Of a DNA stretch of 62,436 bases, positions 7,809 through 57,533 are shown in pieces. Source of the DNA: a virus; IMG/VR virus record IMGVR_UViG_3300023440_000005, positions 1-62,436 of that record; one strand, 5' to 3'. The notes below the pieces were generated by a model. It was not told the origin of the DNA and did not search any database. It saw only the letters and a list, made by a program, of their open reading frames with translations. The position numbers and the translations under genes were made by a program. How positions within the stretch are numbered: the first letter of the stretch is position 1; each line of letters begins with the position of its first letter.

Positions 7809-9221
7809 TTAAACTAAAAAGTCCTTAGTAGATTCCAGTAAGGTCTCTATATCGGATACTAAATTATTATATGTAGCTTTATTCTTATTTAAGATAGGTG
7901 TTAACATAGAATCGCAAAATGTAGGCACTACATATTCCACGGGACTACACCCACCTATCTGTATAGCTATCCTTACCTCCAGATAAATAGAGCAGTTAAT
8001 AGTTAGCATATAAGTATCTTGTATGTTAACCAACAGTTTATGAATAACTCCTGTTATGAATCTGTTAAGATTACCGACATTAAACCCCATGGTTAGACCA
8101 TGACATTCTAGTATCGTAACTTCTGAAGTCATATCACTAGTACAATTAGTAGCTGTAAAACTAATATCAGCTATAAAGTTTTCTATCAATATCCCAGGTA
8201 ATGCACTAGCAATAGTACTAGCTATCTGTGCATCTAGAGTAGCCGTATTCCACGACTCTGAATCTCTACTATGCATTAGATGATCACTATTAGTTAATAG
8301 ACAATCTGTTACAGACGTCACACCCGGATCTATAGTTTCTAGGTCATTGAAATTAAATGAGATGCCCGAACCATACCCTTTTATATTGGAAATGCTTCTA
8401 AATAGAGGATTACCCCTTAACGTACCCTCTTTTAATAGAGATACATCTTTAGAGCGATCATATATTTCGGAGTCGTACTGTCCATAATCCACTAATGACA
8501 GCCCTCTTTTATAATCTGAGACTATAGAAGAAATATACGAGGCTGGATTACTATTACGCCTACTTGACGTAATGTTATCATTTAAGATGTTCCTACTATC
8601 TGTAAATGGTATATTAACTTGATCCTCTGATGCATATCCGGCTTGTAGATATGCTGATTGTATTGCGCTGAACATGTCAGTAGGTCTTGATGTGTATATT
8701 GTAAGTGGTTCATAGCCATTCGCATAGTCTACAACTAACTCATTATTTATAACTTGAGCAGACTCTACCACTGAATCGTTATAAATCTCTCCGGTATTAG
8801 ATTGTAAAACCCCTCTTACTACTTTTATGTAACTGTTTATGTAGAATGTCATCTCAGGATCTATGTTACCCTGCAGGGTAACACCAGGCCTATCTGTAAA
8901 TCCTTGATAGTAATATATACCACCAGTGCCATTAACCGGATTCCATTCCACCACCATAAAAAACCTATTCCTCTTGGTATCCCAACCATTGGGAATTTGA
9001 ATCTGACTACCGGGGATTGCTGATGGGGATAGTGTATTATTAGCAATACCACTAAATAGACCTTCACCTATGGTATCATTCTTGCTGTTATACAGCCGTT
9101 CTGATATCTGATCTAACATAACTCCATCTAACTTTGATTCAAACGGTCTTTCATATATTGGGTTATATGTTCCAGTTTCCTGAAGTATTAACTTAGTTAT
9201 TCTTAATTCTTGACTATACAT
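7809..9221 (-). CDS. Conserved protein in the Imp1/PicA (phiKZ gp69) position
   Basis: 470-aa protein with no catalytic motif I recognise. It appears rich in beta structure, with polar segments and no membrane segment. Gene order suggests a role: it lies between the gp68-type nvRNAP subunit and the gp70-position gene, directly upstream of nvRNAP beta C. In phiKZ that slot is gp69, and in PhiPA3 gp63, the shell-associated import factor named Imp1 or PicA that helps selected proteins enter the phage nucleus. That is known of the family; assigning it here is inference from synteny and similar size, since I cannot align it. It has a strong AGGAG ribosome site. Confidence 0.6.
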   Translation of the reverse strand: MYSQELRITKLILQETGTYNPIYERPFESKLDGVMLDQISERLYNSKNDTIGEGLFSGIANNTLSPSAIPGSQIQIPNGWDTKRNRFFMVVEWNPVNGTGGIYYYQGFTDRPGVTLQGNIDPEMTFYINSYIKVVRGVLQSNTGEIYNDSVVESAQVINNELVVDYANGYEPLTIYTSRPTDMFSAIQSAYLQAGYASEDQVNIPFTDSRNILNDNITSSRRNSNPASYISSIVSDYKRGLSLVDYGQYDSEIYDRSKDVSLLKEGTLRGNPLFRSISNIKGYGSGISFNFNDLETIDPGVTSVTDCLLTNSDHLMHSRDSESWNTATLDAQIASTIASALPGILIENFIADISFTATNCTSDMTSEVTILECHGLTMGFNVGNLNRFITGVIHKLLVNIQDTYMLTINCSIYLEVRIAIQIGGCSPVEYVVPTFCDSMLTPILNKNKATYNNLVSDIETLLESTKDFLV

Positions 9222-9301: not shown

Positions 9302-10834
9302 TTAGTTGGTCTCGTTATCAATTATTAATTCAACGATTTTATTCTTGATATCAGGTACTATAGGACAGCGTTTAGTATTTGAACCAAATACTTCCACAAC
9401 CCTATCAGCTCTAGCAGTAAGTATCCAAGTATATAAACTTAACTCATCAACTAGCTCATTTACTGCATTTACTGCTATATTTATTACCTTTTGCTGGGCT
9501 TTCCTTTTACTATTCAAAACCCTAGTATATGGATAGTACTTAACAAATTTTTCTGCTAATTGCCCATCTAACTTCATCCTACCATCTACTGGCGAAATTG
9601 TAAGATCGCTAGCATCCTCATGGGGATATGTTGTTAGTAGCAGTGCTAGATAGTGATGTCCTCTAGACCACAAAACCTCTTCTGCTACACATAGCATCTT
9701 GGCTATAGTAAGCTTATTGAAGTAGGGCATACTTCTAACACTTATAACTCTCTTAAACACATATGCTAGCAATACTAACTTTATATCTACTATAATAGAT
9801 TTATTTATTATAGATACAGATTTCATTGTAGTGTCCAATGATTCTAACTGAATATTATGTGATAGTTGCTGTGCTATACCTCTTAAATCACTGATACTAT
9901 GCTCCAGTTCAACCACCTCACCAGGGGATATAGATGATTTAATTTTATAAGATTCTAAAATAGATATCTTAGAGCCCCCATCGGTTATGTTTTCATCAAA
10001 TACTTTCTCCTTATAAAGATTCTCATAGTTGTTATCTCTATTCTCAGCTTTCTGGTTTATATATCTATGTAGATATGATATGGCGTTATATTGATCATCA
10101 ATTCCTCGTAGATCACAGATTACTAACTTACGAACGCATAGATTACATAACAGCCAGTTTGTGTAATCTTCAGACGATATCCCCATGAGGATGCTGTCTG
10201 GTCTAAATTTATTGCCTAATATAGCTTCTATATATCGATATAACTTCAATACAGGTTCTAGATTATCAATGTTGGTATATTTAACTAAACGGAATGCATA
10301 ATACTCTTTAAAGTTGGTACCGCTGTTCTTTCTATTATTAGCAATATACTCACCCCATATACCCATCATAGGTCTGAGCATAAGACTTATGCACATTAGA
10401 TCAGAATAATCACTTCTGATATATGTCTTATCCCTACTAGTATTAATATCCACATTACGAACATATTCTGTTGGTATGTTAGAAGGTATGCGTATATTAG
10501 ATTTAAAACTGACATAACGTTTGAGATCATCAAATTGATGAAATTCATACAAAGCTTTAACTGCAAGGGCTATATCCTCTACCATGTTATCTTGGAAGAT
10601 TATATTAGTTAATAGCTCATGAAGTCTAACATAGATACTATATATAGCATCTTGAGTTTCTTCAGGCAATCCTGACCAGTATTTGTTAATTTCCTCAAAG
10701 ATATCATACTCAGCTTGAAAGGTCCTCCTCCCAAATACACTAACGCTAAATACTACAGACATACCCTTATGTTCTATTGATACCTCTGGGGGCTCAATAG
10801 CTAAATGTAAGTTGGTGCTTATAAACATCCTCAT
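9302..10834 (-). CDS. nvRNAP fifth subunit (phiKZ gp68-like)
   Basis: 510-aa, mainly helical protein with no similarity I can see to bacterial RNAP subunits. It is first in a transcription unit that continues to the gp69-position gene, the gp70-position gene and nvRNAP beta C. That is the order around phiKZ gp68, and the length fits. Phage gp68 is the fifth nvRNAP subunit, needed for promoter recognition and taking part of the sigma-factor role. The assignment is by synteny and size. A TATA-like promoter with a 5' stem-loop lies about 20-60 nt upstream of the ATG. Confidence 0.7.
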   Translation of the reverse strand: MRMFISTNLHLAIEPPEVSIEHKGMSVVFSVSVFGRRTFQAEYDIFEEINKYWSGLPEETQDAIYSIYVRLHELLTNIIFQDNMVEDIALAVKALYEFHQFDDLKRYVSFKSNIRIPSNIPTEYVRNVDINTSRDKTYIRSDYSDLMCISLMLRPMMGIWGEYIANNRKNSGTNFKEYYAFRLVKYTNIDNLEPVLKLYRYIEAILGNKFRPDSILMGISSEDYTNWLLCNLCVRKLVICDLRGIDDQYNAISYLHRYINQKAENRDNNYENLYKEKVFDENITDGGSKISILESYKIKSSISPGEVVELEHSISDLRGIAQQLSHNIQLESLDTTMKSVSIINKSIIVDIKLVLLAYVFKRVISVRSMPYFNKLTIAKMLCVAEEVLWSRGHHYLALLLTTYPHEDASDLTISPVDGRMKLDGQLAEKFVKYYPYTRVLNSKRKAQQKVINIAVNAVNELVDELSLYTWILTARADRVVEVFGSNTKRCPIVPDIKNKIVELIIDNETN

Positions 10835-10921: not shown

Positions 10922-10951
10922 CTACAACTACTAGGATCCTAGTAGTTGTAG
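10922..10951. terminator. Perfect 30-bp palindrome, probable transcription terminator
   Basis: A perfect inverted repeat (arm CTACAACTACTAGGA and its complement) with no spacer sits between the end of the SSB-tailed gene and the promoter of the gp68-like gene. There is no T-tract on either side, so its terminator role is inferred from position. Confidence 0.55.
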
Positions 10952-10963
10952 TGAAATGTTATG

Positions 10964-11608
10964 TTAGAAGGGTATGTCATCATCAAACGTCACTTCTGTT
11001 TTTGCATTGTTTGCAATAGGCGTATTAGGCTTAGTCCTATTATACACCCCTTTCTCTCTAAATGCCGCACATAATCCTCCATAAACTCTATCTAGGAATG
11101 TTATTAGTGCCAAGGTATGTCGTTTTGAACCTTCAGTTTTAGACATCTGGGACCCATCCGCCATAGTAACAGCATGAAAGAACGATAGTGTAGATTCAAA
11201 TTTGAGTTTAGGTCTGTTACCATCATTAGATAATAGACTTATCCAACAAATTCCCTCAGCATCTTTACCTAATAACACTGAGGTCATAACTGTAAGATCA
11301 CCTTTCACACCATCTACAGTAGGTCTAAACTTACATTCGACCTTGACTTTATTATCATTAGGACCATTTACAATTTCTCTCCATATATCTAGTAATACAA
11401 AAAAGGACTCCGGATCAAATGCTGCATAAATAATACCATATCGTTCCGTATCATCTGGATCGTTAGTGTATACTGTAATCCTAGGACAACTATCCCTAAT
11501 GCAAAAACATAATTTAGCAGCTTTTGCATTAGGTTTATTTTTAGGTCTAGTCCACATCGTAAATCTAGATAGTTCTTTTATTTCAACTGCTTTATTATCA
11601 TCTGCCAT
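10964..11608 (-). CDS. Putative single-stranded DNA-binding protein with SSB-type acidic tip
   Basis: 214-aa protein whose last residues are EVTFDDDIPF, ending in DDDIPF exactly like E. coli SSB. In bacteria that tip docks repair and replication partners such as exonuclease I, RecQ, PriA and the clamp-loader chi subunit. Before it lie a flexible polar linker (residues 185-203) and a beta-rich body (residues 10-160). I cannot confirm an OB fold by eye. It is the last gene of the operon with the SbcD-like nuclease, which suits a recombination/replication role. It could be a true phage SSB or a non-homologous protein that has captured the SSB tip. Confidence 0.7.
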   Translation of the reverse strand: MADDNKAVEIKELSRFTMWTRPKNKPNAKAAKLCFCIRDSCPRITVYTNDPDDTERYGIIYAAFDPESFFVLLDIWREIVNGPNDNKVKVECKFRPTVDGVKGDLTVMTSVLLGKDAEGICWISLLSNDGNRPKLKFESTLSFFHAVTMADGSQMSKTEGSKRHTLALITFLDRVYGGLCAAFREKGVYNRTKPNTPIANNAKTEVTFDDDIPF

Positions 11609-11612
11609 TATT

Positions 11613-12467
11613 CTATATTCTCATTAAAGTGGTGATTAAAAAAGGATCTTGCAATTTAACTTTTAAATCTAATCGTATTTTAGCCTCTGTTGTAGCTGCA
11701 GTCCAGTTTGAGTCTTTAGCTATTTTTAATATCTCATTCCGTATAACATTAGGATACGGGTTTATTATGACTCTATCCCCAAAGACCACCAGCAACATCT
11801 TATTAAAGGGTATATTATTTATATACTCACCATTGACTTTAGCATATTTTGTACTCCAGGTATTTGGTGTTTTAAGCCTACCAGTATTGGACTCCAATAG
11901 ATCCATACTCTTATATTTCCCATAGTCAATTAAGTCTATTGGCATATGAGTGTGTATAAGAACTGAACCACGGGTTTTCTCATTTAAGGTGCTATTATAC
12001 CTATTAATAGATAGATCGTCTAGCTTTTTAATAAGTTTTCTATATCTATTATAAAAATCCTGTTGTAAAATAGTTTTGGGATGTTTAACTATGGCACTCT
12101 TACACCAACTCCCGACCCAAACATCCTGATATGTCATAGTGTAAAAGATCGGTTTGATAATATCATTACCTTCTTGATCAAATAAACTATATATTACATC
12201 TATCTCTTGTCTTAAGGTATCGGCTAAATCTTCTATACTAGTTGATTGTACATCAATACTTTTCATACTACCAACTAGATTACGATAAAGTGTAAAAACG
12301 TTAATGAAAACATCATTGTACTTTTTGAGATTCACTTTGTTAGGTACCATCCTACTGGAATCATATGGTGCCTCTCTAGGACTAAATAAACTCTCGAAAG
12401 CTAAACCCGTGCCAATGCTTAAGGGAAATGATGAGGTGTTACGATCCGATAAAGCGTTATATTTCAT
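11613..12467 (-). CDS. Hypothetical protein following the SbcD-like nuclease
   Basis: 284-aa protein of unknown function, with no membrane segment and no catalytic motif that I recognise. It has short hydrophobic beta-like runs such as KMLLVVFGDRVIINPYP near residue 225. Its start overlaps the end of the SbcD-like nuclease by 11 nt, and it ends 4 nt before the SSB-tailed gene. Tight coupling between a nuclease and an SSB-like protein suggests it is a partner in DNA processing; that is inference. Confidence 0.65.
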   Translation of the reverse strand: MKYNALSDRNTSSFPLSIGTGLAFESLFSPREAPYDSSRMVPNKVNLKKYNDVFINVFTLYRNLVGSMKSIDVQSTSIEDLADTLRQEIDVIYSLFDQEGNDIIKPIFYTMTYQDVWVGSWCKSAIVKHPKTILQQDFYNRYRKLIKKLDDLSINRYNSTLNEKTRGSVLIHTHMPIDLIDYGKYKSMDLLESNTGRLKTPNTWSTKYAKVNGEYINNIPFNKMLLVVFGDRVIINPYPNVIRNEILKIAKDSNWTAATTEAKIRLDLKVKLQDPFLITTLMRI

Positions 12468-13584
12468 TATGTACCTCCTTAAGCTCCTGTTCTATAATTG
12501 AGACTTCACTATCGTTTAAATCATACTTATCTACCATACTCCCTTTAAGAAGTTTAAGTATGTTATCGGATGTTATGGTTATGGGTTTATATTCTAAGGT
12601 AGTTAATGTAGTCTTTACAACATCACCTGTCTCCACCAACACCTTAGAAAATGTATACATTGGATACTTTAATCGTATCTCATCTAACGAACTATATATA
12701 TGATTATCTCTAGTAGCTTTTATTCTCACATAACTATTATGAGGTATATTAGCTAACTGTTTCTTTAACGACCTGAGAGCTTTATCAGTATCTTTAAATC
12801 TTATATTAATAGTCTTATAGATCTTACTATTTTTATTATGTATGAAGTAGTATCTAGGATTAGGTCCTATGTGTACTAAGATAGCACCCTTATCCTCCTC
12901 CTCCCCATGGGAAAGTCTATCAAAACTACCTTGGGCTAATATACGTTTATACGTACTAAAAGTATGAAAATGTCCTATATTTATGAAGTATTTAACTATA
13001 TTAAGATATGCAGCTTCACTATGGGTATCTATTCTATCATGGAGATTGCCTACTTGATATTTAAAACATCCATGCATAATAGCTATATCTACCTCTTCTA
13101 TACCAACTTTATTTAAGGCTTCCTTAACATGTTCAAAAGTAAGTTCTGTTTTAGCAGTCCACTCATCAGGGACATATAAAACAGTTAGACTTATATCTTC
13201 AATAACCTCTATATGTAACGTATCTATATAGCGTATATCGACATCTTTAAATGATAACTCCGCCATTGTAGTCACAATCCTAGACTGTTTCCAATCATGA
13301 CTAGGAGTGCCCTCTAAAACCCGTAGTTTTATATTATACCGTTTACAGAATGACATAAGTCTAAATAACCATATAGTAACTGCGTGGCTATCATAACTAT
13401 TGAAATCTAAAAGTCTATCAAACATATCTCCGGCTATAAATATAAGATCCAGTGTGGTATATGGTGAACTTTCTGTAAAGTTATTAAAGAAGTCATTGAA
13501 GTGATTTATTATCTCCTCAGTACTAGTTTTCTTATGTCCAAAATGTATATCTGATACTACCAAGTACGATAGATCCTTAGTCAT
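12457..13584 (-). CDS. SbcD/Mre11-like metallophosphoesterase nuclease
   Basis: 375-aa calcineurin-like phosphoesterase of the SbcD/Mre11 type. Metal-binding motifs appear in order: DIHFGH near residue 12, AGDMFD near 50, a GxxxHD variant (EGTPSHD) near 90, HGC near 170 and GHFH near 205. Mre11/SbcD nucleases process double-strand ends and hairpins, normally with an SMC-like ATPase (SbcC/Rad50). No SbcC partner is encoded in the window. It overlaps both neighbours by 8-11 nt in an operon with the SSB-tailed protein, so it probably works in phage replication or recombination. Confidence 0.85.
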   Translation of the reverse strand: MTKDLSYLVVSDIHFGHKKTSTEEIINHFNDFFNNFTESSPYTTLDLIFIAGDMFDRLLDFNSYDSHAVTIWLFRLMSFCKRYNIKLRVLEGTPSHDWKQSRIVTTMAELSFKDVDIRYIDTLHIEVIEDISLTVLYVPDEWTAKTELTFEHVKEALNKVGIEEVDIAIMHGCFKYQVGNLHDRIDTHSEAAYLNIVKYFINIGHFHTFSTYKRILAQGSFDRLSHGEEEDKGAILVHIGPNPRYYFIHNKNSKIYKTINIRFKDTDKALRSLKKQLANIPHNSYVRIKATRDNHIYSSLDEIRLKYPMYTFSKVLVETGDVVKTTLTTLEYKPITITSDNILKLLKGSMVDKYDLNDSEVSIIEQELKEVHNEI

Positions 13585-17027: not shown

Positions 17028-18980
17028 TTAGTATCGGTTATGATAGTTAGCACCTTGGTAATAGGGGTGGTTATTACCGTACACTGGGGGTGCTTTAAAA
17101 TGAGCTCCAGGTTGTACTAGTGCTGAATTAATAAACTCAGCAGATACATGTCTATTTGACAATCCTTCAATACCTACAGAACTATTCACCTTAAAAGGTA
17201 CCCCAGTTTCACGAATACTATTAGACATTGCATTTATAAACTCTGCAGTGAACGTTATACGCTGAGAGTAGCCGGTATACACCGCCGTTTCATTAGTAAA
17301 TGCAGATATCATTCTACGTCTGGCATCTAACTTTATCGATGACGTTACATCATTATCGATATCACCTTCATTAATAAATGTATCTGACCATTCATGTATG
17401 AAATTAGGTTCCTTAGCCATAACTAGATTACACACTGCTAAATAATCAATATCCCGTATATCTCTAACATCACCATCCTTATCAGTCCAATAACCGTTAT
17501 GGATTCGATTATTACTATCTAGAAACATATTAGAACCTCTGGGGAAATACTTGGCAAAACTCCCATTGGTAAGTTCCAACATACTGTCATAGATAATGTT
17601 GTAAGCTATATTACTACCATTACTGGCAGCTGAGAAAACCGAGGTGTACCAAGTCTGCGCTGCAGCTTCTGGACAATCCATAGAAATAATTAACCCTTGA
17701 CAGATTAAAGATGAAACCAATCCACCTAAATCCTCCAACTTAAAATCATTGGCATTGGTATCAATTCGGGTTCCCCACATACCAGGTTCGTTATAAACAT
17801 TACCCGGTATGTTTAAAGCTCCAATATCACCCAGATTGATTTTATTCTCGCCTACTGACATATTAGGTTTAAATACCTGCATCCAATTATTATCATAACT
17901 TAATGATAGCGCAGTATATATATTTAGCAACATGGAACCTACAGTATAACTGTAGTTAGATCCTAGATTAGTAATTACTAATCTAGCCGCAAACTTCTGG
18001 GTATTAGGATTACCCATACCAGACTGCTGATACTGTTGCTGATACCTATTAACTCTAGTCTCTTGAGTGGGGACCAAATCGATATAGGCTGATAATTCAG
18101 ACACCTTAACCTCATTATCAGAACTATTTACTGAGGTTTGAGTATTACGTGCATTCAAATTATTGTATCGTTTTGATTCAAATGATACTAAGACATCAGA
18201 TCTCATCTTACTACCAACAGCATCTTCTACCTGTAGCTTGTTAAATATAGTGTTTACTAGTAGTGTACTATCCTTATCTATAAAGGCTAGGTTGATATCC
18301 GTAAACCCACTACGAGTAGACTCCAATTCCGTGCCTAAAGCTAATCCAGCATTTAATGCTAATCTATGTATTGCAAATTTATCTTCTACCTGACCTCTTG
18401 GAACTACACAACCATCAGTCAGCAGGCGTCTACTGTTAGGGAAAGCTTTCCCTACCTTAGCATCGGCTTTATTGATTAGGATATCATCCATAGCATCGCC
18501 TGTAACTCGAATCACCTCAACTGGATGATCCCCCATATGTCTAACTATAGGCTTTAATACCTCACCAGTTGACTCTATAATTAAAATATGATATGCTACA
18601 GGACCGTTAGGTCCATCTTCTTTATTACGCATCGCTACAATAATGCTTGAAAAAGCTAATGCCTTATCATTGTTATTGTCTAAATCTAACAGGGCTATTT
18701 CAATATGTGGATCTACCACATCCTTATATAGTTCAGCAAGACCGTCTTTTAATTTGGAATATGCCTCGGATCCTATTGATCTACTAATGGGTGCTGCGAA
18801 TAAACCCCCATTATGGAATGAGGTTCTATCTCTAACTGGAGCATCATATGTATCTTGACGTTGCTGGTTAGATTGCTGGTTAGATTGCTGGTTAGATTGC
18901 TGATTAGATTGCTGGTTAGATTGCTGGTTAGATTGCTGGTTAGATTGCTGGTTAGATGTACCTTCTTTAATTATGGCCAT
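17028..18980 (-). CDS. chmA: Chimallin, major phage-nucleus shell protein
   Basis: 650-aa homologue of ChmA (phiKZ gp54, 201phi2-1 gp105), which self-assembles into the one-molecule-thick shell around replicating phage DNA. Length, the adjacent gp55-type nvRNAP gene, the own strong promoter and terminator, and family-like stretches (FSSIIVAMRNKEDGPNGPVAY near residue 105; the C-terminal GVPFKVNSSVGIEGLS) support the call. The N-terminal arm is unusual: after MAIIKEGT come eight tandem SNQQ units before the conserved body. In known chimallins the flexible N- and C-terminal segments link neighbouring protomers, so this Q/N-rich arm may alter lattice flexibility. The C-terminal 20 residues are rich in H, N and Y. 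Confidence 0.88.
   Translation of the reverse strand: MAIIKEGTSNQQSNQQSNQQSNQQSNQQSNQQSNQQSNQQRQDTYDAPVRDRTSFHNGGLFAAPISRSIGSEAYSKLKDGLAELYKDVVDPHIEIALLDLDNNNDKALAFSSIIVAMRNKEDGPNGPVAYHILIIESTGEVLKPIVRHMGDHPVEVIRVTGDAMDDILINKADAKVGKAFPNSRRLLTDGCVVPRGQVEDKFAIHRLALNAGLALGTELESTRSGFTDINLAFIDKDSTLLVNTIFNKLQVEDAVGSKMRSDVLVSFESKRYNNLNARNTQTSVNSSDNEVKVSELSAYIDLVPTQETRVNRYQQQYQQSGMGNPNTQKFAARLVITNLGSNYSYTVGSMLLNIYTALSLSYDNNWMQVFKPNMSVGENKINLGDIGALNIPGNVYNEPGMWGTRIDTNANDFKLEDLGGLVSSLICQGLIISMDCPEAAAQTWYTSVFSAASNGSNIAYNIIYDSMLELTNGSFAKYFPRGSNMFLDSNNRIHNGYWTDKDGDVRDIRDIDYLAVCNLVMAKEPNFIHEWSDTFINEGDIDNDVTSSIKLDARRRMISAFTNETAVYTGYSQRITFTAEFINAMSNSIRETGVPFKVNSSVGIEGLSNRHVSAEFINSALVQPGAHFKAPPVYGNNHPYYQGANYHNRY
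18861..18956 (-). repeat. Eight tandem 12-bp repeats in chmA
   Basis: Eight head-to-tail 12-bp units (TTGCTGGTTAGA on the plus strand), one with a single G-to-A change, encode SNQQ x8 near the start of ChmA. The near identity suggests recent expansion by slippage and likely length variation between isolates. Confidence 0.92.
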
Positions 18981-24937: not shown

Positions 24938-27055
24938 TTAACTATTTAAATCCTTCAGTAGTATATTAGGTTTAACGAAATAACCCAATGTTTCTAACAG
25001 CATTCGGTTAGCTCGTGTTATATCTAGGATGATCTTAGTAGTATTTATGATATTGAGTATCTCAATAGGGATGTTGAATGCATTAATGAAATCTACATTA
25101 ATATAAATAGTAGGTAAGGTGGTCTTTTTATGTTTAGTTAGCCATCCAATAACCCTATTCCTAAACTCACTATCCTCTATACTCGCTACCCATTTACTTA
25201 AACTAGTCTTGTTAATTAAAATAGTTGGTATTTTAACACACCCATATGGTGGTGGATCTATAGTACCGTATTTATCTTGAAAAACATCCATCCATAACAT
25301 GTGTTGTAAATAAGGTGTCTTAGCTGGATTATCATCACTATATCCCTCAGGCGACTTAATTTTACTTAGACTAAAGTATGTACTCTTACCCTTAATAAGT
25401 TCATCATATATCTTGGTTTCAATAGATATCAGATGGTCTAACTCATCTTGAATGGATATTTTTTTACCTTTAATAACTGTATTTAATATATTACTCATCT
25501 GTTTATGAGTATCTGCAGTTATATTCTTAGGGGCCATTGAAGCTTTGAGTAGAGATCCTTTAATCTCTAACGTAGGTTCATTCCAAACATTACCTTCTTG
25601 TATAAGTATACTAGTATAATAGTGCTTAGAAACTAACGCCTGTGCAAAAACTGGAAAGTTATACTCTGGCTTCATAGATAAAATATCCTTCTTATCATTA
25701 GGCACGCCTACATTAGCAGAAAAGATTCTTATAGAATGCTTAATAATCATCGTAGTTAAGAAACCTAATGTATTGGCTATAGCAAACCCTTTAGGTGTGA
25801 AGTCCAAGTTACCAAAATACCATAGTATCCAATTATCTGTACTGAATACCGTACTATCAGTATCTGATAGTACTACACATCTGCGTATCATATGTTTTAT
25901 TCTACTGACATTATTAGGTATGGATGGGGTTGTAAAAAATGCATGTAAAAGGTTATTATATTTCTGTAAGGATTCCTTTATATGTATAATAGTCCCGTAG
26001 AGACACCTTATTGTATCTAAATCCATATCCTTATGATTCATACCCTTACCTCTAACTTCATCCATACATATAACATGAGCTAGTGATATCATCAACTCAT
26101 CACTACCATCTATCACATCTAACATAGTAGGGATATCCACACCATCCAATGCATACTTACAAGATATCTCAGTTAACATATTACGTACTAAGAGATCGTT
26201 ATATAATCGTAAATGGTAAAGGTCTCCTAGGTATACAATAGCAGCTCTCTCAATAGGGTCAAGTTTAGAAACAAACTCTCTAATAGTTTTACTACCGACC
26301 TCATCTTTCCAATATAATTTAGTACTCCTATGTATACATTCCATAGTTTCATCTACAGTAGGGTGGTGTATATTATACTCCGCCATAATAGTAGTCAACT
26401 CTTCATTAGCTATACTAGAAAGATATATCACATTAGCTAAAGTCACATCTATATTATAATAATGCCTATTACCCTCTATGAACTTTTCATTATTAGCATT
26501 AGAGATTGATGACATAACCCTTACGGTTGATGTAAGGGTACTATGAGCTGTAGGATTAAGTAGGGTAGTGCCATCACTACAGAATGTACCAGATAAACTA
26601 TTGTTATAAAGTTTATAATTAGCTTGTTCGTTATGTTTAATACCGAAATCTTTATGTCTACCTTCAGACTTATATTTGAAAGCTAGCTTCTTGGCTTTAG
26701 ATCTTAGGGATATGTTCTGTTCAAGAAACCCCACCAGCATGGAAACCTCTTTCTTAGGGTTCATGTAACTGGTAAATGTAGGGGCTAGTATTTCTTCATT
26801 AGTTACTACATTATCTATATATTGTTTTAATCCTATTTTGGACTTTTCTACATCTTTATTTTCTTTGCGATGATAATACTCTACCGTGGGATTCTTTATA
26901 TTTTCGTTATTTTTATCCCTCACATAGACTCTAGCCTCCTCTAAAGATAGGTCAAGCATTTTAGATACATAAAAGGCACTTTGGTTTAGATATCCTTCTA
27001 GTGGATCTATATCTCTTTTATAGCTCTCAATTGGGTTTATAAATAAATTTGTCAT
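24938..27055 (-). CDS. Family B DNA polymerase, fingers/palm/thumb part (split enzyme)
   Basis: 705-aa replicative polymerase fragment. Motif B, KLYNNSLSG (family pattern KxxxNSxYG), lies near residues 143-151. Motif C, LSDTDST (YxDTDS), lies near residue 400. The region before motif B looks like the fingers (RSKAKKLAFKYKSEG). The metal-binding Asp of motif A (DxxSLYPS) is not found before motif B, and there is no 3'-5' exonuclease domain. The N-terminal domains are therefore probably encoded elsewhere, giving a two-subunit polymerase. No TATA-box promoter is visible directly upstream; a terminator-like hairpin lies only 46-82 nt before the start. Confidence 0.82.
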   Translation of the reverse strand: MTNLFINPIESYKRDIDPLEGYLNQSAFYVSKMLDLSLEEARVYVRDKNNENIKNPTVEYYHRKENKDVEKSKIGLKQYIDNVVTNEEILAPTFTSYMNPKKEVSMLVGFLEQNISLRSKAKKLAFKYKSEGRHKDFGIKHNEQANYKLYNNSLSGTFCSDGTTLLNPTAHSTLTSTVRVMSSISNANNEKFIEGNRHYYNIDVTLANVIYLSSIANEELTTIMAEYNIHHPTVDETMECIHRSTKLYWKDEVGSKTIREFVSKLDPIERAAIVYLGDLYHLRLYNDLLVRNMLTEISCKYALDGVDIPTMLDVIDGSDELMISLAHVICMDEVRGKGMNHKDMDLDTIRCLYGTIIHIKESLQKYNNLLHAFFTTPSIPNNVSRIKHMIRRCVVLSDTDSTVFSTDNWILWYFGNLDFTPKGFAIANTLGFLTTMIIKHSIRIFSANVGVPNDKKDILSMKPEYNFPVFAQALVSKHYYTSILIQEGNVWNEPTLEIKGSLLKASMAPKNITADTHKQMSNILNTVIKGKKISIQDELDHLISIETKIYDELIKGKSTYFSLSKIKSPEGYSDDNPAKTPYLQHMLWMDVFQDKYGTIDPPPYGCVKIPTILINKTSLSKWVASIEDSEFRNRVIGWLTKHKKTTLPTIYINVDFINAFNIPIEILNIINTTKIILDITRANRMLLETLGYFVKPNILLKDLNS

Positions 27056-37856: not shown

Positions 37857-37902
37857 TGTATAGTCTGTAGAATTGAGTAGTTAGTAGATTTCATACTAGA
37901 CA

Positions 37903-37946
37903 TATAGTGCTAGGTCAGTCCTTATAAGGACTGACCTAGCACTATA
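37903..37946. terminator. Perfect palindromic bidirectional terminator
   Basis: A 44-nt perfect inverted repeat (arm begins TATAGTGCTAGGTCAGTCC) lies between the convergent ends of terminase and the 326-aa gene. Confidence 0.75.
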
Positions 37947-37956
37947 GGGATATCTT

Positions 37957-49985: not shown

Positions 49986-50621
49986 CTATTTATGGGTATT
50001 TAAAAAATCTTTAAAAACTTTATCTAATTTCTTCTTTAAACTATTTAGTGTAGAGTTATTAGTTATGTAAATTACATTAAAGTCGTTATTAGCATAGAAG
50101 GAGCGATATCCTTTATTAAGTGTATCTATACCAGCTATAGCTTTTTTATCTAGGTTATTAAATTCACAATCTCGATTTGTAAGTCTATGACTAATATTAG
50201 AGATATCTGAGTCCAAATGGATAATGATATCTGGACGTATGGGCATGATGCTAGGATTATTTAATATAAGATTAAATATATCCTTGGCATTATCATCATT
50301 TAACAAATTTATATTATACGCATAAAAGCAACCTATATATCTATCTGAGATTACACAATAGTTATCATTTAGGTACCTTACTACTTCAGTATAGTGACTA
50401 GAATGTGCTATGGCAGATACTGAAGCATTTAATGAGAGGGGTAGTTCGTTAGATAGTAACGATTCCCTCAATGTGACTCCTACAGTTCCAGATCCTACAG
50501 CTTTAAGTTTTACAGTGGGTTTATATACACTCATAAGCTGTTGCAAATACCCTACTACAATACTCTTACCAACACCATCAGGACCCTGTACCGCCACCCA
50601 TATTGGGGTTTGAACTTTCAT
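49986..50621 (-). CDS. Thymidylate kinase-like protein
   Basis: 211-aa P-loop kinase with the dTMP kinase pattern: Walker A QGPDGVGKS near residues 12-20, the DR motif in ISDRYIG near residue 92, and LID-like RLTNRDCEF near residue 148. Expected to make dTDP from dTMP, complementing the dCMP deaminase. Overlaps vRNAP beta by 4 nt (ATGA). The typical LID arginines are partly different, so activity is likely rather than certain. Confidence 0.82.
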   Translation of the reverse strand: MKVQTPIWVAVQGPDGVGKSIVVGYLQQLMSVYKPTVKLKAVGSGTVGVTLRESLLSNELPLSLNASVSAIAHSSHYTEVVRYLNDNYCVISDRYIGCFYAYNINLLNDDNAKDIFNLILNNPSIMPIRPDIIIHLDSDISNISHRLTNRDCEFNNLDKKAIAGIDTLNKGYRSFYANNDFNVIYITNNSTLNSLKKKLDKVFKDFLNTHK

Positions 50622-53600
50622 GATTTATAAACCTCTATAGCTCTTTTAGCTATTATTTTAAGTAAAGTTATAGTTGTCCCAATTAAAATGGGACTATTAA
50701 CTATTCTAGCAGATATGCTTCTATAGCCAAATACTGCATTGATGGTCTTACCTGACTCGGTAGCCATATCATAATCCATAACTTCACCAATCACACTTTT
50801 AAGTTGGTTAGCAAATATAGCTTTATCCCCAACTCCCATATCCTCTACTATATCAGTATAGATATAAATGGCTATGGTATTAGGCTGTAATGGTTTACCA
50901 CCAACATTAAGATCGCTAGTAACTCTATTATTAGTCAGATTCCCACCAGAAGATTTAGAGTAAGAACTTATTTTCCTATCATACTTATCAGCTATCTTAC
51001 GCAGCGTATCTGACATCTCAGCTTTATCACCATTATAAAATATCTCTATTTTACCTATAGTTCCATTATAGTGGGACTTAGGAGTTTGGCTGGCTATTTT
51101 TTTTAGTGCAGATAAAGAGTCGCTACTAAAAATACCTAGGGAACTAGTGATATCATCTTCTATAACTAGTAATATGTCATGAGGTTTTACCTTACTACCT
51201 ACTTTTATAAGGTCATATACATTCTGATCGAAAGTCAAAGTTATAATTTTAGGTTTGCTAACAGTTGTTTTAAAAGAGTCGGTTACCATCTTACTCACAG
51301 CAGAACTATCTTCGAATGTTTGATTAGATTCATATATAGCCGTTGTAACTGGAAAACTAGTCTTATATACTATTTCAGTAGGATCTAGAATGTCAGGCTC
51401 AAAAAAGTTCTCATTATAAGCAATAACGTCCCCTTTCTTAAACTTAACCCCCTCTTTTATATTAGGTATAATGTTATGCGGATAGTAAGTCCCTTCAGCT
51501 GCACCATAGATAGGTCCTAATTTAATACCTTTTTTCTTACCATCACTATACTCGATGATAATGCCATCGGTATCTATGGATTTAACTACACCATCTAACC
51601 GAGCGCTATATGAGAACTCCTCAGATGTACGCTTACCGATAACATACTCATAACCAGTTCTAACATAAGGTTGACGATATGCTTCAGCCGCAATGGTATG
51701 GGTATTTTGAATGTTAACAAAGTTTACCCTCTTACCATCATCTTTATCAGAACTAGGAGCTAACAGCATACTGGTACTAAATAAACTAGAGTTGGTCAAT
51801 TGTTTATTCTTACTCATTATACCTCTAAGAGAACCGATGTTAGGATTAGCTGATAGATATGAATTTACACCTACTGCTGAACTATCTACAGTAGCCTCAG
51901 ATACTACCCCTAAATCAGATTTATGGAAAGCTCTAGAAGCCCTATTTAGCGTTTCAGTACTACGCCCACCCTCACCCGTGTAGGTAAGAACCTCAACTTC
52001 TTTTAAATTCTGTATGGGGTTAGTCTGCTCGATTAATTTAGTGCTATTATCTTTAACGATTTTATTCCAGATATCATAATTACCTACATTTACTTTAGCA
52101 CGACCCGCTATATTACGATTTCTGAAAGAGCGTATGGATTGAACCATCTGACTATAAATCATACCAGCCATACGTTCATACCCTCTTATACGCATATATT
52201 GGAGATCTTGACTATCTGGAGTGTTAAAATCTAAGAGTAGTTTGTTGGAGTATAGTAGCATACCTATGAAAGTAGTAGGCTCATTACGAGCTTCTAATAT
52301 AGTAAGGGTTATGCTATCAATGAACATATCTTTAAGCAGATCTAATTCACGTATATAGATAGGTCCTAACTTCATAGATGTTAGGAGGTTAAAATAAACA
52401 TCAGAATTATCCATTTCATCATCTTTAAACCCTATTAGAATTTTCTTATATTTATTAAATCCAGCTAATATAAGACTGACCTCCACATCATCTTTAGAAA
52501 ATATATAAGTTATATTTTGAAATTTTATAATATATTCATTTTCACTAGGTCTATATCTTAACTCAGCACTAGTCTTATATGTCACACTTAACAATTTAAG
52601 TAATCCGGTAAATCCAAAATAGTATGCTAACACAATCCCTAAAGGTATGTGTTTACGGAAAACTCTTAATTCCGTAATATCCATAGGTGCTTTTTTCTTA
52701 TCTACACCAACTACATCATAGAGTGAACCTAGTTCAGTAAATACACCTTTTGAATAAGAATGTAGATTATCGTCATAGTCCATAATTATAATACTACCAT
52801 CAGTACTACTACCTATAACCCTACCATTAGCTTCTACTTTAGCTAAAGGAGTGGTATTTGCAATATCACTCCTATCCACATGGTCTAAGTTAAAGGTTAT
52901 ATCACCACTAACAAAACTCTTGAAGTGTTTAGCTAAAGAGTTATAAAGATAAGGTGCTTCAAAAGTATTGGTATATACATCTGCTGGAGCTACTTTAGAT
53001 ATATTACTAGATTCATCTAAACCCAATAGTCGTATACGTTTAACTAGCCACTCAGTACTACTATCATTTTTTCTACTAGATCTAGTTATAAAGATCTTAC
53101 CATAATAGGATGTTAGGGCTACTACATTAGGTTGTATCTTACGTATAGGTAGATCTATACGTTGAATACGCATAACCACCTCTTTACCATTAACCATCAT
53201 TATACCATGATCATTGACCTTGGGTAGTTTAAACTTAATAGTTGATTGGGCCCCATCTATAGGTTTAATAGTGAGAGTATGCATGTCATAAGAACCCAAT
53301 TTATCTTCTATAGGTAATATTTCATGTTTCTTTATTACGATGCCTGCATTCTGGATATCATTAATAGATCTCATGATATCCTTATCAAGAACTTCAGTAA
53401 CATATTTTGTGTTAAATGATAGTAAGGATGATTCCAACATAGATTTATCTTGGACTAAATCACTAGCTACTATTTTAACTACATCAGTATCTAAAGTCAA
53501 ATCATCACTACTTAGCTTAATAAAATCTGATATGGCAGTACCGGTATAAGGATTATCTGACCTACTAAACTCATCTATGGCAGTTAGATATGATTTAGCA

Positions 53601-54772
53601 CTACTAGCTGGAATGTTAACATCCCTAATCGACTTTAAAATCTTACCCTTAAGAATATCTTTTGGGTTAACATAGGTCATGACGGCATTAACATCAATAT
53701 CCCCCACCACGATTTTCTTTTTATGTACACTACCATCATTAGATACAATAACCCCCATATCACTTAGAGTGCTAGAAGTTACCGCATTAAGTATGGTCAT
53801 ATCTTTATCTACATCTAATATCTCAAGACCGGTATTGTCAGATGTGTTAACCTCATCTTCTGACTCTACATCAGAAATAGTTAAAGGTTCATCATTAACG
53901 GCTATATCGATGGCAGCTTGTAGACTCATAAGTGCTTTTATAAAGAATTTACCAAGTTGAATACTAGATATATTGGAGTTAGTTTTGACATCAGATAGGT
54001 CATGACCTTTAATCCAACTACGCAAGTAACCTAAATTCATGATAATACTTTTATCACTTTCATTAGTGAAAATAATACTTATCTTAGATAGACCCTTTTC
54101 ATCTAGAACCGCCATGCTACTAAGGGGGGATTCTACTACTAACCATCTCCATAGATCAAGTATATTAAGCATACTTTGATCAGTAAAGACCTCAGATATA
54201 TGCAGAGTAGTATTACTCTCATATATCTTTAGTAACTTTATACTAGGTAATAACTTAGGTAGATAATAATGGACATATTGATGTCTAGAATATATGCTAG
54301 CTTCATTAACATAGAGCCATAGACGTTTTCTTACATTGAACCATTTGAAGTATTCATGATATCCTGAATTAGTATATTTATAACTTTTATTGATATAACT
54401 AAAGTTAGCCATTGTCAATAAAAGAGGATTATCTGTACTTATGTAAGGTAGCTCCTTAGGTTTAAACTGTTTATTATCAGTAAAGAATTTTCTACTTAAA
54501 GCTTTAACATTAGAATGGACTTTTGTATACCTACCTTCAGGATTTATTAAATCTGTAACTATATCCGTATAAACAACACGATTGTAGTTTGATAACACTC
54601 CAATATTGCTAGATAGATCTACACTATGATTTTCATCAGCAATATAGTTATATGATGCCGATTTAGGTAATTCTTTAAGTATGAAAATTGGAGGATTAAG
54701 TAACTGTGCTAGTTTTCTTATCCCATTCTTTTTATAAAATATTTCTTGTGTTAGCATATTACCATTCTCCAA
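50618..54772 (-). CDS. vRNAP beta subunit (virion RNA polymerase)
   Basis: 1384-aa RNA polymerase beta-like protein, equivalent to phiKZ gp178. The N-terminal two thirds are highly diverged. TGEGGRSTETLNRASRAFHKSDLGVV near 928-955 (GPGG...H..G of beta) runs into an equivalent of the rifampicin-region motif. AEGTYYPHNIIPN lies near 1097, followed by a FKKGDVIAYN element. VGDKAIFANQLKSVIGEV near 1316 matches the KxANRxGNKGV element. Both halves of beta are thus present in one chain, whereas nvRNAP beta is split. This enzyme enters the host with the DNA and transcribes early genes. Overlaps the 228-aa gene upstream by 14 nt. Confidence 0.87.
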   Translation of the reverse strand: MENGNMLTQEIFYKKNGIRKLAQLLNPPIFILKELPKSASYNYIADENHSVDLSSNIGVLSNYNRVVYTDIVTDLINPEGRYTKVHSNVKALSRKFFTDNKQFKPKELPYISTDNPLLLTMANFSYINKSYKYTNSGYHEYFKWFNVRKRLWLYVNEASIYSRHQYVHYYLPKLLPSIKLLKIYESNTTLHISEVFTDQSMLNILDLWRWLVVESPLSSMAVLDEKGLSKISIIFTNESDKSIIMNLGYLRSWIKGHDLSDVKTNSNISSIQLGKFFIKALMSLQAAIDIAVNDEPLTISDVESEDEVNTSDNTGLEILDVDKDMTILNAVTSSTLSDMGVIVSNDGSVHKKKIVVGDIDVNAVMTYVNPKDILKGKILKSIRDVNIPASSAKSYLTAIDEFSRSDNPYTGTAISDFIKLSSDDLTLDTDVVKIVASDLVQDKSMLESSLLSFNTKYVTEVLDKDIMRSINDIQNAGIVIKKHEILPIEDKLGSYDMHTLTIKPIDGAQSTIKFKLPKVNDHGIMMVNGKEVVMRIQRIDLPIRKIQPNVVALTSYYGKIFITRSSRKNDSSTEWLVKRIRLLGLDESSNISKVAPADVYTNTFEAPYLYNSLAKHFKSFVSGDITFNLDHVDRSDIANTTPLAKVEANGRVIGSSTDGSIIIMDYDDNLHSYSKGVFTELGSLYDVVGVDKKKAPMDITELRVFRKHIPLGIVLAYYFGFTGLLKLLSVTYKTSAELRYRPSENEYIIKFQNITYIFSKDDVEVSLILAGFNKYKKILIGFKDDEMDNSDVYFNLLTSMKLGPIYIRELDLLKDMFIDSITLTILEARNEPTTFIGMLLYSNKLLLDFNTPDSQDLQYMRIRGYERMAGMIYSQMVQSIRSFRNRNIAGRAKVNVGNYDIWNKIVKDNSTKLIEQTNPIQNLKEVEVLTYTGEGGRSTETLNRASRAFHKSDLGVVSEATVDSSAVGVNSYLSANPNIGSLRGIMSKNKQLTNSSLFSTSMLLAPSSDKDDGKRVNFVNIQNTHTIAAEAYRQPYVRTGYEYVIGKRTSEEFSYSARLDGVVKSIDTDGIIIEYSDGKKKGIKLGPIYGAAEGTYYPHNIIPNIKEGVKFKKGDVIAYNENFFEPDILDPTEIVYKTSFPVTTAIYESNQTFEDSSAVSKMVTDSFKTTVSKPKIITLTFDQNVYDLIKVGSKVKPHDILLVIEDDITSSLGIFSSDSLSALKKIASQTPKSHYNGTIGKIEIFYNGDKAEMSDTLRKIADKYDRKISSYSKSSGGNLTNNRVTSDLNVGGKPLQPNTIAIYIYTDIVEDMGVGDKAIFANQLKSVIGEVMDYDMATESGKTINAVFGYRSISARIVNSPILIGTTITLLKIIAKRAIEVYKS

Positions 54773-55613: not shown

Positions 55614-56084
55614 CGGATAACCTCGTTACGATTATCCCGCAGCATTATCTGCAGCTTATACAGTTAGTATAATGTAGAGACCATATCACCACCCCCGTGA
55701 ATACGGTAGGGTGCTTCCCGTTTCCCTATCACTGATAGGTACACCGTGGTTAGCGGTTGGTCGTTGATCACATCCCACTGAATAACATAGAGGGACTTCG
55801 AGGCTGATTGCACATTGTTAATAACACTTAGACTTACTATCATCATATGTCATATACATGATTGTTTCTACTTTCGTAGCCGTAATAGTCTGCCATTTCT
55901 AGCTATCTATGGTGGCTCATGTATCTTTAGCACGTTCCAGCAGTTAGAGAAGTAACTACTCGACTATTACTAGCCGGTAGGACAGTGTAACGATTAGTAC
56001 GTTACCAAGTACAATAAATTGTACTAATCGTTATCACCCTAAATAGGTGAATCTGCTAGTAGGTATAACATAGCAGATACATTA
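55614..56084 (-). ncRNA. Group I self-splicing intron in the vRNAP beta-prime gene
   Basis: About 470 nt without a real gene, dividing the beta-prime catalytic loop. On the minus strand it holds the ordered group I core elements. AACTGCTGGAACGTGCTAAAG (55925-55945; P4/P5-like) is followed by GATCAACGACCAACCGCTAA (55750-55769; R-like, cf. GTTCAACGACTAGA) and GGTGATATGGTCTCTAC (55674-55690; S-like, cf. GATATAGTCC). GACC of R can pair with GGTC of S as P7. There are strong hairpins near the 5' end (TAACGATTAGTAC with GTACTAATCGTTA; ATCTGCTA with TAGCAGAT). A terminal hairpin (GGATAA...TTATCC) is followed by G, the expected last base. The 5' exon ends in T. No homing endonuclease lies inside. Confidence 0.83.
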
Positions 56085-57533
56085 ATCAAAGTCAGCACCC
56101 ATCCTTCCTAGGTACCTATGTGGAATATTAAGAGTATCAAAAAAACCAGTATCTTTTATAGGGAATTCCTTAGCTATAAATGGGGTAGGTTGTAGATCGC
56201 TATCTAACTCATAGAGCACTAGTGATTTATTGGTAGTTCTTAAATAAGCATAAATTAAATTAATACTACCATATCCAGTTATAGGGTATCGTGTTATAAG
56301 ACCGGGTATCTCATCAGACCCCTTATATACGGATAGATATAATAACTCTGATAACGTTATTGGATTGAGATTAACTCTAAGATCTTCAGGTATAGTATTT
56401 TTATCATATACTACCCTATACCCTTTGCCATCATTATATAAGAGCGCTAGATAATGATCTTCTATTTCAATAACATCATGACGGATATCGCTTATACCAA
56501 ATTTAGCTACAGTCTTTTCTATACCGTCGTAAGTCATCCATTCATCATAGGTTTCAGGGGCAATATCAACACTTACCCGTTCTAATGTTTTCTTATCTAT
56601 AAGAAATGCGGCACTATCAGAACCTACAAATATATTAGATAAATATGTATCACGTATATTTTTAACCGTTAGAGGTAAAGTAGATCTCAGATATTCATGC
56701 ATACCTACTATACACTGTTTAGAAGTTACATTGTTAGGATCTCCTAAGCGCTTCATACTCCGTATACTACTACTTAAAACATTTCTAGTGCTATTGAATA
56801 TATTCCTAGATATCCACTTACCTTGTATAAGCTTACCCTTTCCTTTTAAGAGATCCTCTATATATAAGTAGAGATCCAGTATAACTGTTTGTAGAGTATA
56901 TCTACTAGAGTCTAGAAGTTCTAAGTTTTGTTTAACCGTTATACCCTCTATGGAATTACTTATGCCTAAAATACGTTTATAGAAACCATTGACCTCATCT
57001 TCGGAAGGGGTTCCGGTGCTATCCACGAAGTAATCCCTTATACCAGCTGGCATGACTACTAGTTTATCAATAATGTGGTTATCTATATACTTTTCAATAA
57101 GAGCTATATTATACTCTCTTTGTGAACTATCAGTTTTAACTAATTTAAGTTCTTTTATATGCGATAAGAAAAAACTATAACCAGTATCGCCATCAACTGG
57201 TGATGCTGGCTCAAAGTCTAGAGTCTCCGTATTAAAGGTAGCGAATTTCTTACCACTCAATATATCCCCATAGAATGCTTTTAGTTTAACTATGAGTTTA
57301 AAAAATAAAGGATGCATAACTGTTATATTTAAATTAATATAACTAAATATACGATTACGACTCTCTTCTCCTACCTTACCAAAAATCTCAGTACTAAAGA
57401 GACCTTCTGGATGGAAATTCTTAGTAGATCCTATAAACGTGTCTAATACCTTAACTGGCGATATCCCTTTCACATCACGATCTTTAGGAATAAGAAGTTC
57501 AATATTAAATGGTACTTGGGTCATATTTAACAC
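56082..57533 (-). CDS. vRNAP beta-prime subunit N-terminal part, exon 1
   Basis: Exon 1 gives 483 residues of the beta-prime N part (phiKZ gp180 position), ending ...RYLGRMGADFD and then a TAA that belongs to the intron. Seen: FHPEGLFSTEIFG near residue 40 (cf. the GLF...IFGP start of beta-prime); QGKWISRNIFNSTRNVLSS near residue 237, the counterpart of the lid/rudder-side KRVDYSGRSVI; and the first two aspartates of the catalytic loop at the very end. A chain stopping here would have no active site, so exon 2 (55449-55613) must be joined. The zinc ribbon cysteines of bacterial beta-prime are not seen. The C-terminal half of beta-prime is not in the window. Confidence 0.88.
   Translation of the reverse strand: MLNMTQVPFNIELLIPKDRDVKGISPVKVLDTFIGSTKNFHPEGLFSTEIFGKVGEESRNRIFSYINLNITVMHPLFFKLIVKLKAFYGDILSGKKFATFNTETLDFEPASPVDGDTGYSFFLSHIKELKLVKTDSSQREYNIALIEKYIDNHIIDKLVVMPAGIRDYFVDSTGTPSEDEVNGFYKRILGISNSIEGITVKQNLELLDSSRYTLQTVILDLYLYIEDLLKGKGKLIQGKWISRNIFNSTRNVLSSSIRSMKRLGDPNNVTSKQCIVGMHEYLRSTLPLTVKNIRDTYLSNIFVGSDSAAFLIDKKTLERVSVDIAPETYDEWMTYDGIEKTVAKFGISDIRHDVIEIEDHYLALLYNDGKGYRVVYDKNTIPEDLRVNLNPITLSELLYLSVYKGSDEIPGLITRYPITGYGSINLIYAYLRTTNKSLVLYELDSDLQPTPFIAKEFPIKDTGFFDTLNIPHRYLGRMGADFD

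What the first reader, a model, noticed from the sequence alone, without database searches (positions are those of the whole stretch)
10964..11608. Phage protein ending in the exact bacterial SSB tip DDDIPF
The C terminus FDDDIPF equals that of E. coli SSB, which recruits a dozen host repair and replication proteins. In a nucleus-forming phage, host proteins are kept out of the nucleus, so a tip matching the host code could draw in chosen host enzymes or sequester them outside, or bind phage partners that use the same pocket. It shares an operon with an SbcD-like nuclease.
Basis: partly seen in the sequence, partly recalled or inferred. Interest (0 to 1): 0.62.

Follow-up and report, generated by a model that had tools for sequence, protein, structure and literature searches.

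The report
ChmC protein with SSB-like tail tip
The gene encodes a new relative of ChmC, the RNA-binding protein at the shell of the phage nucleus, and most of this protein family, not just this member, ends in an acidic, aromatic-capped tip like that of bacterial single-stranded-DNA-binding protein, which probably serves the phage's own nucleic-acid machinery rather than host repair enzymes.

Summary
In detail: the 214-aa ORF at 11608-10964 (-) ends FDDDIPF, identical to E. coli SSB. It is not an SSB, however. By homology (28-33% to phiKZ gp067/PhiPA3 gp061; phrog_3284), gene order (SbcD, 066, this gene, nvRNAP subunit 068, PicA 069) and a chimallin gene in the window, it is a divergent ChmC (Imp6), the essential RNA-binding, shell-associated protein of nucleus-forming phages. 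Its predicted core is not an OB fold; the nearest solved structures are Whirly/PUR-type nucleic-acid binders (MRP1/MRP2, Pur-alpha).

The tip is not chance. 29 of 34 ChmCs end in F or W, and 20 of 34 also have at least 3 acidic residues in the last 8, against 0 of 106 proteins of the four neighbouring genes. Across 18 chimallivirus records, DD-[ILM]-PF-stop occurs three times, always at the end of chmC.

ChmCs of Pseudomonas phages have drifted (MPSF, IPNF, SFDW), and the exact hexapeptide is absent even in the closest relative. This argues against host mimicry and for a phage partner or self-gating. The held literature does not mention the tip; the primary ChmC paper was not available. Known protein, apparently undescribed feature, function untested.

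The parts
10964..11608 (-). chmC orthologue, 214 aa: predicted Whirly/PUR-like nucleic-acid-binding core (about residues 11-185), short disordered linker (about 186-207) without the Gly-rich repeat common in relatives, acidic tip FDDDIPF (208-214)
10964..10987 (-). Codons of the SSB-type tip FDDDIPF plus stop
   Evidence: same last seven residues as E. coli SSB
10922..10951 (-). 30-nt perfect palindrome (13-bp stem, 4-nt loop when folded) just after the chmC stop, no U-run after it; probable transcript end or processing hairpin
   Evidence: a hairpin follows chmC in all 26 loci folded, but gene-end hairpins are common in this window
11613..12467 (-). Orthologue of phiKZ gp066 (function unknown), 4 nt upstream of chmC
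   Evidence: 31% identity, E 2e-30; phrog_3229
12457..13584 (-). SbcD-like nuclease, orthologue of phiKZ gp065
   Evidence: phrog_100 E 2.4e-52; 37% identity, E 2e-69
9302..10834 (-). Orthologue of phiKZ gp068 (nvRNAP subunit / sigma-like)
   Evidence: 23% identity, E 1e-38; phrog_3209
7809..9221 (-). Orthologue of phiKZ gp069, PicA/Imp1 nuclear import factor
   Evidence: 23% identity, E 1e-27; same family phrog_3141
17028..18980 (-). Chimallin (ChmA) homologue, nuclear shell protein
   Evidence: phrog_4795 E 3.5e-58

Best explanation
The protein is a divergent ChmC: a nucleic-acid-binding (mainly RNA-binding) protein with a Whirly/PUR-like core, encoded next to a non-virion RNA polymerase subunit and PicA and working at the phage nuclear shell. 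Its tail works like the tail of bacterial SSB or T7 gp2.5: a flexible linker carries a short acidic peptide with a terminal aromatic residue. When the core is not on RNA or ssDNA, the tip folds back on the basic binding face; when the core is loaded, the tip is freed and can hold a partner, most likely a phage-encoded protein inside or at the nucleus (candidates: nvRNAP, PicA, helicases, RNase H, UvsX/RecA, SbcD). Shown here: identity, gene order, family-wide tip, absence of a Pfam PF00436 SSB in relatives. Shown by others for orthologues: RNA binding, shell localisation, proximity to ChmA and RecA, need for plaque formation. Inferred: self-gating and partner binding by the tip. My odds: ChmC identity about 0.95; tip is a functional interaction motif about 0.75; its partner is mainly phage-encoded or ChmC itself about 0.6.
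For: Homology: tblastn to phiKZ067, PhiPA3 061 and others; phrog_3284 hit by window, phiKZ, Goslar, EL and Vibrio members alike. Gene order around 065-069 kept from the window to phiKZ, PhiPA3, Phabio, FLC9, Goslar, RAY and EL. phiKZ067 is listed as 'ChmC RNA-binding protein' with a strong plaque defect on knock-down (PMC12571901). PhiPA3 gp61 was found in both RecA and ChmA proximity labelling and localises to the nuclear shell (PMC10643120). [quoted passage not shown] PMC12908238). Fold: two models (mean pLDDT 80 and 88); the top 7 PDB matches of the better one are PURA, Pur-alpha and MRP1/MRP2. Tip: 29/34 end in F/W, 20/34 also acidic, controls 0/106; SSB-like tips are strongly clustered on the core tree, 4 changes against 10.9 in shuffles, 0 of 500 as low. 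The first 190 residues are net positive in all true orthologues and the last eight net negative in all but one. Precedent for a phage tip serving a phage partner: HK620 SSB ends NDYPPF and needs its last six residues for Sak4 binding to SSB-covered ssDNA (PMC5928155).
Against: No interaction or binding was or could be tested here. Fold matches are modest (best E 3e-3, TM at most 0.5). The exact hexapeptide is not conserved: the nearest relative ends EFDDVF, and some members (Vibrio Yong XC31, Psa21, D6, Goslar) have weakly acidic ends. The primary ChmC paper (NAR 2024, PMC11077065) was not held, so any tail experiments in it are unknown to me. The window protein lacks the Gly-rich linker of most relatives, and its RNA binding is assumed from orthologues about 30% identical.
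Confidence: 0.68

Rival explanations
1. Host mimicry: the tip copies the host SSB code so that host SSB-binding enzymes (ExoI, RecQ, PriA, DnaG and others) are drawn in or held outside the nucleus.
For: Last seven residues identical to E. coli SSB; the same exact tip in Proteus phage 10 and IMG/VR locus L014, and near-identical tips in Erwinia phages.
Against: Pseudomonas phage ChmCs end MPSF, IPNF, VPDFG, SFDW, DVEF, DVMAF although the Pseudomonas SSB tip is DDDIPF (own knowledge). The tip type follows ChmC descent. Import into the nucleus is selective and excludes DNA-targeting host defence proteins (PMC11087766, abstract start).
Confidence: 0.12
2. ChmC is also the general SSB of these phages: it coats ssDNA at phage forks with a non-OB core and uses the tip to recruit the phage replisome.
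For: No PF00436 SSB in any of 18 chimallivirus records, while the same search finds it in 12 of 14 control genomes. Core resembles Pur-alpha and MRP1/2, single-strand binders. PhiPA3 gp61 is labelled by phage RecA fusion. Architecture core + Gly-rich linker + acidic tip is that of SSB.
Against: PhiPA3 gp61-GFP sits at the shell, not throughout the nucleus; published work stresses RNA. Absence of other SSB types is not shown: searches for gp32, T7 gp2.5 and Enc34 families had no ringing control.
Confidence: 0.22
3. The tail is only a generic acidic, disordered end that tunes solubility or condensation; the exact DDDIPF match is a coincidence of a loosely constrained acidic-aromatic end.
For: Exact hexapeptide not present in the closest relative; several orthologues have only loosely similar ends.
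Against: Terminal F/W in 29/34 and clustering of D-[ILMT]-P-[FWM] through deep branches; the three DD-[ILM]-PF-stop sites in 18 records are all chmC.
Confidence: 0.2

Closest known systems
ChmC / Imp6 (phiKZ gp067, PhiPA3 gp061, Goslar_00176)
   Same: Homologous core, same gene order, same phage family with chimallin, acidic-aromatic C-terminal end
   Different: About 30% identity in the matched part, short linker without the Gly-rich repeat, tip exactly DDDIPF instead of EDMPSF (phiKZ), DEIPNF (PhiPA3) or FDGLAF (Goslar)
Bacterial SSB (E. coli SSB, PF00436)
   Same: Identical last seven residues; core + flexible linker + acidic tip layout
   Different: No OB fold predicted, no Pfam match, orthologues known as RNA binders
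Phage SSBs with partner-binding tails (HK620 SSB NDYPPF; T7 gp2.5)
   Same: Acidic C-terminal end closed by an aromatic residue; in HK620 used for a phage partner (PMC5928155)
   Different: Those have SSB-type cores and work on ssDNA; no homology seen to this protein
Whirly/PUR-type binders (T. brucei MRP1/MRP2, Pur-alpha)
   Same: Closest solved folds to the predicted core; single-stranded RNA/DNA binders
   Different: No sequence similarity, modest structural scores, no SSB-type tip known to me

Membership tests
ChmC (phage nucleus RNA-binding protein) | Sequence homology to phiKZ gp067 / PhiPA3 gp61 | tested here: met
   tblastn E 4e-9 and 6e-8; phrog_3284 E 3.3e-17
ChmC (phage nucleus RNA-binding protein) | Conserved neighbourhood (SbcD, 066, nvRNAP 068, PicA 069) | tested here: met
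ChmC (phage nucleus RNA-binding protein) | Phage encodes chimallin | tested here: met
   phrog_4795 at 17028-18980
ChmC (phage nucleus RNA-binding protein) | Nucleic-acid-binding fold | tested here: inconclusive
   predicted only; best PDB matches PURA and MRP1/2, prob 0.77-1.00 but E no better than 3e-3
ChmC (phage nucleus RNA-binding protein) | Binds RNA; sits at nuclear shell | not testable with these tools
   known only for orthologues
Bacterial-type SSB (PF00436) | OB-fold core / Pfam SSB match | tested here: not met
   no match; no OB-fold SSB among the 50 listed
Bacterial-type SSB (PF00436) | Acidic C-terminal tip DDDIPF | tested here: met
Bacterial-type SSB (PF00436) | ssDNA binding | not testable with these tools
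   needs a binding assay
Whirly/PUR superfamily | Repeated beta-sheet + helix topology binding single strands | tested here: inconclusive
   model has two beta-sheet-plus-helix halves; modest Foldseek scores

The most novel reading that the evidence does not exclude
ChmC is a non-OB functional equivalent of SSB for the whole Chimalliviridae: a Whirly/PUR-type coat for single-stranded RNA and DNA whose SSB-type tip is a hub that tethers the phage's own polymerase, repair and import proteins at the nuclear shell, coupling transcript or fork handling to export.
Probability: 0.22. Interest if true: 0.72.

Novelty: new member of a known kind. Interest (0 to 1): 0.42.

Why it matters
ChmC is essential and thought to help mRNA leave the phage nucleus, but how it engages other proteins is unclear. 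A short, family-wide tip of a well-understood type gives a six-residue handle (delete or change the last residue) for finding its partners and for asking whether RNA export and ssDNA handling in the phage nucleus use SSB-type logic. It also corrects an easy misreading: the motif alone would have this annotated as an SSB or a host mimic.

Tried and rejected
Pfam, NCBIfam and PDB sequence searches with the protein or family profile gave nothing useful. Searches for T4 gp32, Enc34 SSB and T7 gp2.5 families in chimallivirus records gave nothing, but no control rang either, so absence is not shown. Megablast of the first 25 kb against phages: no match, so the host cannot be named. A scan for the Vibrio-type ChmC in IMG/VR found no relative. 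The genome-contig scan added only two Burkholderia-family contigs that repeat loci already seen or their kin. The hairpin after chmC looked special (26 of 26 loci), but gene-end hairpins are frequent in this window, so it was not made part of the claim. The primary ChmC paper is not in the library. OBP (L032) was dropped: the hit lies in a 655-aa open frame in another gene context.

Full report
OBSERVATION. The ORF at 11608-10964 (minus strand, 214 aa) ends FDDDIPF, the same seven residues as E. coli SSB (PDB 1eqq). The window carries a chimallin gene (17028-18980, phrog_4795, E 3.5e-58), so the phage is of the nucleus-forming kind. The gene follows an SbcD-like nuclease and one more gene, with an 11-nt overlap and a 4-nt gap.

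IDENTITY. tblastn against phage records finds phiKZ PHIKZ067 (E 4e-9), PhiPA3 061 (E 6e-8), Phabio, 201phi2-1, FLC9 and others, mostly at 28-33% identity over about 120-160 residues. The window protein, phiKZ067, Goslar, EL and Vibrio members all hit phrog_3284. Neighbours match one to one: phiKZ065 (37%, E 2e-69), 066 (31%, E 2e-30), 068 (23%, E 1e-38), 069 (23%, E 1e-27), and the order is the same in PhiPA3, Phabio, FLC9, Goslar, RAY and EL (in RAY two small genes are inserted; FLC8 has an extra gene before 066). phiKZ067 is 'ChmC RNA-binding protein', with a strong effect on plaques when knocked down, in PMC12571901. PhiPA3 gp61 is in the RecA and ChmA proximity-labelling sets and localises to the nuclear shell (PMC10643120). 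Reviews describe ChmC/Imp6 as binding phage mRNA, possibly exporting it, and contributing to protein import (PMC12908238; PMC13282480). The primary ChmC paper is not held.

FOLD. AlphaFold2 on 19 window/IMG-VR sequences gives mean pLDDT 80 for the window protein, with the last 29 residues disordered, and 88 for the core of relative L002. Foldseek against the PDB gives T. brucei MRP1/MRP2 guide-RNA binders first for the window model (E 0.02), and PURA, MRP1/MRP2 and Pur-alpha as the top seven for the better model (E 3e-3 to 2e-2, prob 0.77-1.00). No OB-fold SSB is among the 50 listed in either search. Scores are modest, so I call the core Whirly/PUR-like, not proven. Among predicted viral structures, phage proteins of unknown function, EL among them, match at E down to 7e-12.

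THE TIP IS A FAMILY FEATURE. C-termini of 34 orthologues: 29 end in F or W; 24 have at least three acidic residues in the last eight; 20 have both. The same count of 'both' for genes 065, 066, 068 and 069 in the same loci is 0/30, 0/34, 0/23 and 0/19. In 18 chimallivirus records, DD-[ILM]-PF-stop occurs three times: L014's contig, RAY and Proteus phage 10, each the 3' end of chmC; control pattern zero. With up to two mismatches, background appears, as expected. Most relatives carry a Gly-rich linker before the tip; the window protein does not. On a tree of the cores, D-[ILMT]-P-[FWM] ends need only 4 changes against 10.9 in shuffles (0 of 500 as low), so the tip type is largely inherited; but the window's nearest relative (L013) ends EFDDVF. 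The tree is shaky at its base (long branches), and some rows are near-copies, which inflates clustering.

WHAT THE TIP DOES. Host mimicry fits poorly: ChmCs of Pseudomonas phages have left the IPF form though their hosts' SSB has it (own knowledge), and import into the nucleus is selective (abstract of PMC11087766). The first 190 residues are net positive in all true orthologues and the last eight net negative in all but one, which fits a tip that competes with nucleic acid for the core, as reported for SSB (discussed in PMC5928155) and for T7 gp2.5 (own knowledge). A phage SSB tip with a phage partner has precedent: HK620 SSB (NDYPPF) and Sak4. I therefore favour self-gating plus a phage-encoded partner. 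No partner is identified here.

COULD IT BE THE PHAGE SSB? There is no PF00436 match in 18 records, where 12 of 14 control genomes ring, so these phages lack a recognisable bacterial-type SSB. Other phage SSB types could not be excluded. The reading stays open at about 0.2.

VERDICT.

Noticed in passing
L039 925-2337 (Erwinia phage pEa_SNUABM_54, MW879341.1): A ChmC of about 470 aa with two tandem core-like regions and a long Gly/Gln/Asn-rich linker, ending DTDIPF: apparently a tandem duplication of the core with one tip.
   Followed up: partly
L044 2108-2470 (phiKZ196) and L045 2064-2513 (PhiPA3 gp228): A second conserved phage protein (phrog_17880, unknown function) ends DEIPF / NDIPF, found as near matches to the tip pattern.
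   Followed up: partly
window 10922-10951 and the same place in 25 other chmC loci: A long hairpin, different in sequence each time and mostly without a U-run, follows the chmC stop codon in all 26 loci folded; hairpins after genes are also common elsewhere in this window.
   Followed up: partly
window 37857-37956: A very strong palindrome (TATAGTGCTAGGTCAGTCCTTATAAGGACTGACCTAGCACTATA) lies between the convergent genes ending at 37856 and 37957.
   Followed up: no
L042 3001-3729: A RAY-type ChmC whose C-terminus is changed (ends ...RRERLWFW) compared with L040/L041, possibly a frameshift, sequencing error or lost tip.
   Followed up: no
window 24938-27055, 50618-54772, 56082-57533: Divergent family B DNA polymerase (PF20286, E 1.8e-196) and further RNA polymerase subunit genes, typical of phiKZ-like phages.
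   Followed up: no
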